Positions 7,094 to 10,331 of a stretch of DNA of 64,000 bases are shown here, piece by piece. A model generated the notes under the pieces. It worked only from the letters and a program-made list of their open reading frames with translations, was not told the DNA's origin and did no database searches. The DNA is from Planctomycetales bacterium (GTDB lineage: Bacteria; Planctomycetota; Planctomycetia; Isosphaerales; Isosphaeraceae). Where the stretch lies: assembly GCA_027449865.1 (NCBI GenBank), contig DAIDKV010000025.1:1-64000 (forward strand), written 5' to 3'. Position numbers and translations under genes: made by a program. The stretch's first letter is position 1. Every line of letters starts with the position of its first letter.

Positions 7094-7852
7094 TCAGGGC
7101 CGATCGACGAGCGGGAGACCAAAATCAGGGCTCTGGATATGGCGGACATAGGCCTCGGCGTGTCGATGGCCGCTCTCGATCCCTCGCATCCGCGTGGCCT
7201 GTTCCTGCAGGGCGTAATACCTGTCGGGGGTCTGGCTGGCGTGCGCGTAGCAGGCCCGGCGTTTCCGCGGCTCGGTCCCGGTGATGTCGACGTAGTGCGT
7301 CGGCGCGAACTGCACGGTGTCCTCGCCGGGCGACACTTCGTAATAGTACAGGGCGAACGTCTTGCCGAGCTTAAGCCAGGCGTCGTAGACGAGCATCGAG
7401 ATGGCGCGATGATCGGCGTGGTTGTCGATCGGCCAGTGGGTGAAAACGACATCCGGTCGCTCGGCCTCCAGGTTCTTCCGGAAGGCGGCGTAGTGGTCGG
7501 CATCGACGACGGCCTTGCTGTTGGCGTGGCCGGCGTAGAGGGGACGTGCCTTGAGGATGCCGCAGGCCGCCTGGGCCTCGGCCATCCGTGAGGCGCCGGC
7601 GTGGGGTTCGGTGCTGGGCGGCCATTCGCCCCGATTCAGGTAGAGCAGAGCGACGTCGTGGCCGAGGTCCGCGTACCTTGCGATCGTGCCACCGCAGCCG
7701 TACTCGGGATCGCCGGGGTGGCCGCCGGTCACGAGGATCTTGAGCCGGGCCGGCGGCGTCCGCTCGTCGGCGGTCATGGCCAGGCCCGGTGCCAGCGCGG
7801 CCCCGAGACCGCCCGCCACCGTCAACACCTGCCGTCGAGTTGGGATATTCAT
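7094..7852 (-). CDS. PIG-L/LmbE family deacetylase, exported, with altered active-site motif
   Basis: A 252-residue PIG-L (LmbE) family protein, zinc-dependent deacetylases acting on N-acetylglucosamine-type substrates. The N-terminus RRQVLTVAGG followed by an Ala/Gly-rich stretch resembles a Tat-type signal. The first family motif, normally AHPDDE, reads GGHPGDPE: the zinc-binding His and second Asp are kept, but the first Asp, the general base in characterised members such as MshB, is Gly. The second motif DNHADH is intact. The ATG at 7852 lies only 18 bases from the left hairpin of the TnpB element and no ribosome site is visible in that gap, so the element may have separated the gene from its original promoter. 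Confidence 0.85.
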   Translation of the reverse strand: MNIPTRRQVLTVAGGLGAALAPGLAMTADERTPPARLKILVTGGHPGDPEYGCGGTIARYADLGHDVALLYLNRGEWPPSTEPHAGASRMAEAQAACGILKARPLYAGHANSKAVVDADHYAAFRKNLEAERPDVVFTHWPIDNHADHRAISMLVYDAWLKLGKTFALYYYEVSPGEDTVQFAPTHYVDITGTEPRKRRACYAHASQTPDRYYALQEQATRMRGIESGHRHAEAYVRHIQSPDFGLPLVDRP

Positions 7853-7870
7853 AAAACTGGCGGCAGGAGA

Positions 7871-7890
7871 CCCTCTCCTTCAGGAGAGGG
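7871..7890. repeat. left-end hairpin of the TnpB element
   Basis: CCCTCTCCT at 7871-7879 and AGGAGAGGG at 7882-7890 form a perfect nine-base-pair stem with a two-base loop. Its core CTCCTTCAGGAG closely matches the right-end hairpin core CTCCTTTAGGAG, which is good evidence that both mark the ends of one element. Confidence 0.75.
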
Positions 7891-7963
7891 AGGAATGCCG
7901 CTCCGTTCGGGTTCGTCCGTCGGATGCCTTGGCCGAAGGAATGAATTCTGCTACACTTAAGAC

Positions 7964-9100
7964 ATGAAGCTCACGATGCAACTCCAACTGCTGCCGACCG
8001 CCGACCATAAGGCTCAACTCCTGGAGACGATGGAGCGGTTCAACGAAGCTGCCACCTTCGCCGCGAAGGCCGGTTTCGAGCACAAGGTCTACGGCCAGGT
8101 TGCGATCCACGGGCTCGCTTATCGCGAGATCCGGGAGCGGTTCGGTTTGTCGGCGCAGATGGCCGTGAGGGCCATCGCCAAGGCGGTGGAGTGCTTCCAG
8201 CGGGACAAAACGGTCTGCCCGACCTTCAAGCCACGGGGAGCCATCTGCTATGACCAGCGTGTCCTGAGCTTCAAGGGCCTGACGGCCGTCAGCCTGTGGG
8301 CGATGACGGGGCGACTCCTGATCCCGTTCGTCTGCGGCGGCTACCAGAAGGAGCGGCAAGGGCGGATCAAGGGGCAGGCCGATCTCGTCTATCGCGGGGG
8401 TAAGTTCTACCTGCTCTGCACGATCGAGTTGCCGGAAGGCTCCCCGATCGAGCCGACCGACGTGATTGGGGTCGATCTCGGGATCGTCAACGTCGCCACC
8501 GACTCGACCGGCGAAGTCTTCTCGGGGGCCGAAGTCCAGAGGAACCGGCGTCGCCGCGCGACGGCCCGCAAGCAGCACCAGCGGAAGGGGAGTAAGAGGG
8601 CCAAGCGGAAACTCAAGCAGATGGCCGGGCGGCAACGCCGCTTCCAGGCCAAAACGAACCACGAGATCAGCAAGAAACTGGTGGCCAAGGCCAAGGCACT
8701 CGGCGTCGGCATCGCGATGGAGGATCTCTCCGGCATCCGCGACCGCGTCGAGCCAACGGTTGGCAGGCGATTCCGCCGCCAGTTCGGGAATTGGGGCTTC
8801 GCCCAACTGGGCCTGTTCGTGGAGTACAAGGCCAAACTCGCGGGTGTGCCCGTGATCCAGGTCGATCCTCGGAACAGCAGCCGCACTTGCTCGAAGTGCG
8901 GCCACTGCGAGAAGGGCAACCGACCCGATCAGGCTACGTTCCGTTGCAGGCACTGCGGATACTCCACGAACGCCGATCTCAACGCCGCCGAGAATCTCCG
9001 GATTCGAGGCTTGGGGCACCTTGTAAACGGCCCCGAAAAGTCGCCGGTCGGTCCGGTTCTTCCGGTCCGTCGAACCGAGCGGCAAAGCCCCCTCCTTTAG
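7964..9100 (+). CDS. tnpB: TnpB, RNA-guided nuclease of IS200/IS605 family
   Basis: A complete 378-residue TnpB (OrfB). The split RuvC domain has all three catalytic acids: Asp171 in GVDLGIVNVAT, Glu253 in MEDLSGI and Asp338 in NADLNAAENL. A zinc finger is formed by Cys309, Cys312, Cys328 and Cys331 (CSKCG and CRHCG). The N-terminal HTH-like region and a basic RRRRATARKQ segment around 195-220 fit RNA binding. TnpB proteins of this family cleave DNA guided by an RNA from the element's right end. The TAG stop lies inside the right-end hairpin. There is no frameshift or missing motif, so the enzyme is probably functional even though no transposase accompanies it. Confidence 0.93.
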   Translation: MKLTMQLQLLPTADHKAQLLETMERFNEAATFAAKAGFEHKVYGQVAIHGLAYREIRERFGLSAQMAVRAIAKAVECFQRDKTVCPTFKPRGAICYDQRVLSFKGLTAVSLWAMTGRLLIPFVCGGYQKERQGRIKGQADLVYRGGKFYLLCTIELPEGSPIEPTDVIGVDLGIVNVATDSTGEVFSGAEVQRNRRRRATARKQHQRKGSKRAKRKLKQMAGRQRRFQAKTNHEISKKLVAKAKALGVGIAMEDLSGIRDRVEPTVGRRFRRQFGNWGFAQLGLFVEYKAKLAGVPVIQVDPRNSSRTCSKCGHCEKGNRPDQATFRCRHCGYSTNADLNAAENLRIRGLGHLVNGPEKSPVGPVLPVRRTERQSPLL

Positions 9101-9107
9101 GAGGAGG
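8950..9107 (+). ncRNA. putative omega RNA (reRNA) of TnpB
   Basis: In characterised TnpB elements the guide scaffold overlaps the 3' end of tnpB and the right end, and the guide is the host DNA immediately past that end. Here the interval holds GC-rich self-complementary stretches (for example GGTCGGTCCGG and CCGGTCCGTCG) and ends in the right-end hairpin. The 5' boundary is a guess. The predicted guide would begin near 9108 with sequence ATGTTTACGACC or slightly upstream of it. Confidence 0.35.
9091..9104. repeat. right-end hairpin of the TnpB element
   Basis: CCTCCT at 9091-9096 pairs with AGGAGG at 9099-9104 around a two-base loop. The tnpB stop codon TAG at 9098-9100 is part of the hairpin, as is common in compact elements of this group. 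Confidence 0.7.
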
Positions 9108-9194
9108 ATGTTTACGACCGGCGGTCCTCTTCCGACGCCCGAGATTCGGCAGGGCATCCCGCCGCGGCGGATCGGGCGAACGCCGCGGTATCGA

Positions 9195-10331
9195 TCAATA
9201 AGAATCGGCGCTGATGACTTCGCCCTGGGCCCGCGAGCCGAGCCCCCAGAGCGTGAGCTGGCTGACCGAGTTCTTCAGGAACCGGGCCGAGCCGTCGGCC
9301 ATCAGGATGTTGCAGCCTCCAGGATGGTGGCTACTCAGACCGAAGTAGCCGTAGTCGTCGTCGGTGTCGCCCAGGCCGTACATATCGGCACCACAGTTCG
9401 GGTAGGGGGGATTCGGGCCCACCAGAGTGTTACCCAGAGTATGGAAGAAGAGGCCGACGCACCAGTCCTGGCCCAGCTCATTGTAGGGATTGCCCTGCGA
9501 GTTCGCCGACGGAATCTGCTGGGCGCATTGCCGGAGCCACTGGTTGAAGCCGTAGCCGCCCGCCGGCATCAGCAACAACGGCGAGCCGGGGGTCGCTCCG
9601 GTCGGGAGTGTGGGTCCCATCGGAACAGCATCCTGCGGCAGCGTCAGGGTATTCTTGTTCGAACCCGTGATCCATTCGCCGAAGGCGATCGTATTCGAGG
9701 TCCCGTCGGTCACCGACTGAATGCCGATCGCGGGACCGAAAACCTGGAACATTCCATTCGGCGCCGCCGAGCCGACCGGCAGTTCGGCATACGGACTGTT
9801 GCCATACTGGTTCATCCCCGAGCCGACCGAGGCGAAATAGGTGTTGCCCGGGAAGAAATACGAGACCGACGAATATTGCGAGTACAACTGATTCTGGTTC
9901 GAGGGGCAGAGAAACGCGCTGATCGCCTGCGTGGTCGCCGTGGTCTGGGCCAGGTCGTCGCCATTTCCATTGTCCTCGGAGACGAGGCTGAAGTTGATCG
10001 AATTGTAGGTCGTCGTCTGCTCCATGAACGAGAGCAGCATCGACTGGGCACTCCAGCATCCCCAACCCTGGGCGACCTGCCCCGAGAGGTTGCTCGTGTT
10101 CGACCCGCCAGGGGGAAAGCAGTTGTTGGCGGAGTGATAGTTGTGCATCGCCAGGCCGATCTGCTTCAGGTTGTTGGTGCACTGGGCCCGCCTCGCTGCC
10201 TCACGCGCCGCCTGGACCGCCGGCAGCAAGAGCGCGATCAGGACTGCGATGATGGCGATGACGACCAGCAACTCGATCAGGGTGAAGCCACTCGCCGGAC
10301 GACGCCGGGACGCCGAGAGAAGAATGCACAT
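9195..10331 (-). CDS. DUF1559 pseudopilin-like protein
   Basis: A 378-residue member of the large planctomycete DUF1559 family. The N-terminus carries a type IV prepilin/pseudopilin signature, [20 protein letters not shown], with the cleavage Gly before Phe and the conserved Glu at +5. This helix is followed by [18 protein letters not shown], typical of the family. The C-terminus has the H-X9-DG motif, [12 protein letters not shown]. It is probably processed by a prepilin peptidase and anchored in the cell envelope; precise function is unknown. Ribosome site AGGAG is six bases upstream. It follows a small lipoprotein gene by 85 bases, so the two are likely cotranscribed. Confidence 0.93.

What the first reader, a model, noticed from the sequence alone, without database searches (positions are those of the whole stretch)
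7871..9107. Intact solo TnpB with paired hairpin ends and likely guide RNA
The RuvC acids (Asp171, Glu253, Asp338) and four zinc-finger cysteines are intact although no TnpA is present. Both ends have hairpins with near-identical cores, and the ends share TGCCGCTC-GTTCG in inverse orientation. The stop codon is in the right hairpin. The element should still express an RNA-guided nuclease, with guide sequence taken from host DNA just beyond 9107.
Basis: partly seen in the sequence, partly recalled or inferred. Interest (0 to 1): 0.55.

Follow-up and report, generated by a model that had tools for sequence, protein, structure and literature searches.

The report
TnpB element sitting at start codon
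A small transposon carrying an apparently intact RNA-guided DNA cutter (TnpB) has landed exactly in front of a gene's start codon, and related copies in other genomes do this unusually often, which suggests a way for such elements to live next to genes without breaking them.

Summary
The window holds one 1,263-bp solo-TnpB element of the IS200/IS605 (IS1341-like) kind at 7853-9115, with tnpB at 7964-9100 and RuvC D171/E253/D338 and Cys309/312/328/331 intact. Comparison with relatives puts the left end behind TTCAT (7848-7852) and the right end at GTTTAC (9110-9115), so the guide starts at 9116, not 9108. A pseudoknot pairing the last six bases with a loop about 80-118 nt upstream is complete in 28 of 28 related TnpB copies with a recognisable right end and covaries; it matches the published ISDra2 omega-RNA pseudoknot. 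The nuclease system is therefore ordinary and probably functional (not tested).

The unexpected part is the target. TTCAT is the complement of ATGAA, and the element sits between the native leader and the start codon of a PIG-L deacetylase gene. Of 19 related copies behind [TC]CAT, 14 abut the start codon of a Pfam-recognised gene, against 12-20% of non-coding ATGA/ATGG sites and 1 of 17 sister copies that use a TCAC-type target in one of the same genomes. Many left ends carry an outward Shine-Dalgarno-like sequence. A prospective check gave 1 of 3. I found no earlier report in the papers I could search.

The parts
7848..7852 (+). TTCAT: insertion target and inferred TAM; its complement ATGAA starts the PIG-L gene on the - strand
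   Evidence: sequence; [TC]CAT directly in front of the left end of 19 related copies, this one included
7853..9115 (+). whole element, 1,263 bp
   Evidence: joined flanks and comparison with relatives
7853..7963 (+). left end with hairpin CCCTCTCC-TTCA-GGAGAGGG (7871-7890)
   Evidence: conserved in L114, L115, L126, L127
7964..9100 (+). tnpB, 378 aa; catalytic D171/E253/D338, zinc C309/C312/C328/C331; last ~20 residues read through the omega-RNA region and are predicted disordered
9013..9034 (+). omega-RNA stem GGGGC/GCCCC whose loop holds GTAAAC
9023..9028 (+). pseudoknot 5' strand GTAAAC
9091..9104 (+). right-end hairpin CCTCC-TTTA-GGAGG, with the tnpB stop TAG (9098-9100) inside
9110..9115 (+). 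GTTTAC: pseudoknot 3' strand, last bases of the element and probable right cleavage site
9116..9131 (+). predicted 16-nt guide GACCGGCGGTCCTCTT; antisense to the native leader of the PIG-L gene
   Evidence: position; 16-nt length from ISDra2 (PMC10097598, passages)
7094..7852 (-). PIG-L (GlcNAc-PI de-N-acetylase-like) gene; its start codon (7850-7852) abuts the element
   Evidence: Pfam PF02585; homologues with similar RR-containing N-termini
9125..9130 (-). AGAGGA, Shine-Dalgarno-like sequence of the native PIG-L leader, now cut off from its start codon by the element
   Evidence: joined flanks; inference

Best explanation
A non-autonomous IS200/IS605-type (IS1341-like) element. Shown by sequence: it lies between TTCAT and the native leader of a PIG-L gene, leaves the ATG intact and replaces the leader with its own left end. 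Inferred: a TnpA acting in trans moved it; the 3' part of the tnpB transcript is the omega-RNA, folded through the GTAAAC/GTTTAC pseudoknot; TnpB with the guide from 9116 onward cuts the empty site (TTCAT + GACCGGCGGTCCTCTT) so that it is refilled by copying from an occupied chromosome. This lineage's target, [TC]CAT, is the complement of start codons, and copies are found in front of start codons far more often than the motif alone predicts. Many copies outside the planctomycetes also carry a Shine-Dalgarno-like sequence at the outward-facing left edge, which could replace the one they displace.
For: TnpB identity and catalytic residues. Ends: the copies L126 and L127 (338 bp, tnpB lost) share sequence up to [..CTTT|ATGAAT] on one side and [GTCAAG..] on the other and then differ. 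Removing the element from L115 and L063 restores a gene overlap at ATGA (joined sequences; the upstream frames were read by eye). Pseudoknot complete in 22 of 22 copies (132 of 132 pairs, 9 distinct pairings, 0 of 20,000 shuffles reach it) and in 6 of 6 more with a recognisable right end. Start codons: Pfam genes begin at the ATG in 14 of 19 copies. The mechanical coding test also gives 14 of 19, against 1 of 17 for TCAC-type sister copies (Fisher p = 4e-5) and 12-20% of non-coding ATGA/ATGG sites being start-like.
Against: 5 of 19 copies are not at a recognised gene start: L114, L065, L183, L184, and L060 (87-aa frame, no Pfam match). The prospective test gave 1 of 3. The five planctomycete copies, this one included, show no Shine-Dalgarno-like sequence in the left end. 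No TnpA with matching ends was found in this genome: six Y1 matches, one in an element with different ends, the rest not examined further. No expression data. The TAM is inferred from flanks only. No empty site of this exact insertion was found: homologous PIG-L genes lack the element, but their leaders are too diverged to show it.
Confidence: 0.75

Rival explanations
1. Plain solo-TnpB element; the start-codon position is a by-product of the CAT target plus removal of insertions that break genes.
For: [TC]CAT sites are often gene starts, and coding insertions are purged. The same-target copies L183 and L184 are not at starts.
Against: Only 12-20% of non-coding ATGA/ATGG sites are start-like, yet 14 of 19 copies are. 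Sister copies in the same genome with a TCAC-type target, under the same purging, score 1 of 17.
Confidence: 0.4
2. Domesticated RNA-guided repressor (TldR-like) controlling the adjacent gene, with the guide antisense to the leader.
For: The guide is antisense to the native leader; the element adjoins a host gene.
Against: All RuvC residues are intact, whereas TldR proteins are nuclease-dead (recalled). The guide targets the flank created by insertion, as in any TnpB element.
Confidence: 0.04
3. Decaying relic with no remaining activity.
For: Single full copy in the genome; no TnpA with matching ends found.
Against: Open frame, intact catalytic and zinc residues, intact pseudoknot. By contrast L060 has a stop and a damaged right end, and 4 of 4 short tnpB-less copies in G099 have no full pseudoknot pairing.
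Confidence: 0.2

Closest known systems
ISDra2 TnpB / IS200-IS605 family
   Same: TnpB with RuvC triad and CCCC zinc finger, subterminal hairpins, omega-RNA at the 3' end with a terminal pseudoknot, guide from the right flank (PMC10097598, abstract and passages; hairpins and flank guide recalled)
   Different: No TnpA in the element; target TCAT instead of TTGAT; right end TTTAC
IS1341-type solo TnpB elements
   Same: tnpB only, hairpin ends, moved in trans (family features recalled)
   Different: Targets [TC]CAT and is found in front of start codons
Cas12f (type V-F)
   Same: Best sequence and fold matches in the PDB are Cas12f
   Different: Shorter; lies between transposon ends. A CRISPR array was not searched for specifically

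Membership tests
IS200/IS605 family, IS1341-like group | TnpB with RuvC D-E-D and CCCC zinc finger | tested here: met
IS200/IS605 family, IS1341-like group | subterminal hairpins; insertion 3' of a short fixed target without target duplication | tested here: met
   no duplication at the joined junctions
IS200/IS605 family, IS1341-like group | no tnpA inside (solo tnpB) | tested here: met
   Y1 matches lie on other contigs
IS200/IS605 family, IS1341-like group | mobilised in trans by a Y1 TnpA | not testable with these tools
   tnpB-less copies exist (L126, L127, L013, L014), which implies a trans source; no cognate TnpA found in this genome
TnpB-omega-RNA guided nuclease | structured RNA at the right end with a pseudoknot to the terminal bases | tested here: met
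   28 of 28 recognisable right ends; 29th (L060) damaged
TnpB-omega-RNA guided nuclease | RNA-guided DNA cleavage next to a TAM | not testable with these tools
   needs biochemistry
TldR (nuclease-dead TnpB repressor) | loss of RuvC catalytic residues | tested here: not met
   D171, E253, D338 present
Cas12f | association with a CRISPR array | not tested
   repeats were listed only for 7700-9300

The most novel reading that the evidence does not exclude
A lineage of TnpB elements and their miniature derivatives homes to translation starts. The target/TAM is the complement of the start codon, insertion parts the Shine-Dalgarno sequence from the ATG, and the left end has evolved a portable outward Shine-Dalgarno sequence that restores expression, so the element can occupy genes, probably essential ones included (ClpB-like, topoisomerase I), while the guide RNA is antisense to the displaced leader.
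Probability: 0.35. Interest if true: 0.7.

Novelty: new variant of a known kind. Interest (0 to 1): 0.5.

Why it matters
If it holds, it shows how an RNA-guided transposon can use a dense, universal and nearly harmless class of sites (start codons) and swap gene leaders, which would make these elements movable regulatory parts. It also gives a bp-exact rule for finding guide starts: the terminal hexamer must pair with the omega-RNA loop.

Tried and rejected
A first reading of the L031/L126 copy as a 69-bp miniature ending in GTTTAC was wrong: the second copy L127 shows that it is 338 bp and ends in TTGAC. A first codon-usage rule for gene starts was too insensitive and was replaced.

A class of copies (L053, L058, L061, L062, L067, L071, L072, L075, L077) at first looked as if inserted at Shine-Dalgarno sequences; by eye L053 lies in a CoA-transferase-like and L072 in a MazF-like frame and their left boundary is not settled, so all nine were left out of the start-codon count. 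Also left out: L078, L080, L157, L167, L168, L177, L185 (other targets or not scored), L164, L073, L081 (no or too little left flank), L117, the archaeal loci and the TCAA-type planctomycete copies L013-L016, L029, L032. L170, L176, L178 and L179 repeat elements already listed. Three further matches (C128, C43, C39) lie at known copies.

Guide search: TCAT plus 12 guide bases has no exact match in the genome, one with 1 mismatch (C88), and at up to 3 mismatches 216 places against 141 for the reversed control, so no clear second target. Rfam gave nothing; promoter and terminator scans gave nothing. Close relatives are rare: at E <= 1e-75 1 of 392 genomes of the phylum, the window's own; at E <= 1e-95 1 of 41 in the set around G099, G099 itself.

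Full report
What is there. A 378-codon frame at 7964-9100 encodes TnpB: Pfam OrfB_IS605 and Cas12f1-like_TNB, NCBIfam guided_TnpB with 165 bits. D171, E253, D338 and C309/C312/C328/C331 are in place and conserved over 25 relatives. They correspond to D191/E278/D361 and the four cysteines of ISDra2 TnpB (PMC10097598, passages read; the residue-to-residue match is by motif). The AlphaFold2 model has mean pLDDT 84, with residues 358-378 disordered, and matches Cas12f and TnpB structures.

Where the ends are. The genome holds no second full copy. Relatives come from the same genus (L114 73%, L115 60%, L117 51% protein identity) and from an unrelated MAG, G099, with 27 copies at E <= 1e-60. Aligned, most right ends stop at TTGAC or TTAC, which in the window is GTTTAC 9110-9115; the left end follows TTCAT 7848-7852. 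Three facts fix the boundaries to the base. (i) Two 338-bp tnpB-less copies in two genomes, L126 and L127, differ outside exactly these points. (ii) Joining the flanks of L115 and L063 restores ATGA gene overlaps (upstream frames read by eye). (iii) The terminal hexamer pairs fully with a loop hexamer about 80-118 nt upstream in 22 of 22 copies, with 9 distinct pairings and 0 of 20,000 shuffles reaching it, and in 6 of the 7 copies not in that count; the seventh, L060, has a damaged right end. In the window GTAAAC 9023-9028 pairs with GTTTAC. The loop hexamers were picked by hand; a shuffled 40-nt stretch holds a fully pairable hexamer in 9.6% of cases. The published ISDra2 omega-RNA has a pseudoknot in a comparable arrangement. 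The pairing is complete in 3 of 4 planctomycete tnpB-less copies (5 of 6 pairs in the fourth) but in 0 of 4 short G099 ones, which suggests that it serves the RNA and not the transposase. The guide thus begins at 9116: GACCGGCGGTCCTCTT for 16 nt.

The target. TTCAT is the complement of ATGAA, the start of a PIG-L gene on the other strand (7094-7852). Homologous genes in the family, found without the element, have similar N-termini with a twin-arginine-like RR motif, which supports the ATG at 7850-7852 as the real start. Joining the flanks gives GGAAGAGGACCGCCGGTC|ATGAATATC: the element has parted a Shine-Dalgarno-like AGAGGA from the start codon.

Is that a pattern? I collected every copy in hand whose left end I could place directly behind [TC]CAT: 5 from planctomycetes (window, L114, L115, L126, L127) and 14 from G099 (L060, L063-L066, L172-L175, L180-L184). 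In 14 of 19 the ATG begins a Pfam-recognised gene: PIG-L, phosphodiesterase, CHASE3 histidine kinase, phosphonate-binding protein, AcrB-type pump, response regulator, SpoIIE phosphatase; PAC2, ring-hydroxylase beta, DUF2520, acetyl-CoA-synthetase-like, Clp, alcohol dehydrogenase; topoisomerase I. The others are L060 (87-aa frame, no match), L114, L065, L183 and L184. The last three read (L182-L184) were a test written down beforehand: 1 of 3 agreed. A mechanical coding rule also gives 14 of 19, with L060 in and L066 out. Background: 12-20% of ATGA/ATGG sites outside coding sequence are start-like in about 400 kb of G099 and 464 kb of this genome. Control: 17 sister copies in G099 with a TCAC-type target (15 TCAC, 2 CCAC) pass the same downstream test in 1 case; Fisher p = 4e-5 and binomial p between 3e-9 and 8e-5 depending on the background taken. 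These p-values treat insertions as independent, and the classes were drawn by my reading of the left ends. For nine copies the left boundary is not settled and they are in neither class (see Tried and rejected).

The left ends. Read outward, the G099 left ends at gene starts place GAGG, AGGG or AAAGGG about 5-8 bases before the ATG (listed for representatives). Those of L183/L184 (not at starts), of the TCAC class and of the planctomycete copies do not. L065 has such a sequence but is not at a gene start. A replacement Shine-Dalgarno sequence is my inference.

Mobility. The window element has no tnpA. Six Y1 matches lie elsewhere in this genome; the best, on contig C10, sits in an element with a TTAC-type target and different ends. 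L183 carries an intact-looking Y1 TnpA behind a CCAT-type left end, so such a TnpA exists for this target in G099.

Literature. Searches for TnpB with TTCAT, and for TnpB/IS605 with start codons (listings only, open-licence library), showed no report of start-codon targeting; many subscription papers are not held.

Noticed in passing
L013 (G000 C179) and L014 (G000 C230): Two copies in the window's genome keep a related left end and an omega-RNA-like right end, but tnpB is replaced by repeats of a GATCGCCGGCTGGAGCCGGCTCCTACAAGGG-type palindrome.
   Followed up: partly
L126 (G001), L127 (G003): tnpB-less 338-bp copies keep a complete omega-RNA scaffold and guide position: possible guide-only elements served by TnpB in trans.
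   Followed up: partly
L183 and L184 (G099 C161, C91): Elements with a CCAT-type left end and a Y1 TnpA (intact-looking in L183, apparently degenerate in L184) and no tnpB in the stretch read: a likely mobiliser of this target class.
   Followed up: partly
L008/L047 (G000 C10:49100-50593): TnpA+TnpB element in the window's genome; joining ATTAC with CAACCCCGG appears by eye to restore a reading frame, so its right end may lie before TCAAC.
   Followed up: no
window 9195-10331 -: Frame with a prepilin-like N-terminus ([17 protein letters not shown]) next to the element, of the kind common in planctomycetes (recalled).
   Followed up: no
window 7964-9100 (P0001): This TnpB is nearer in sequence and fold to Cas12f than to ISDra2 TnpB.
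   Followed up: no
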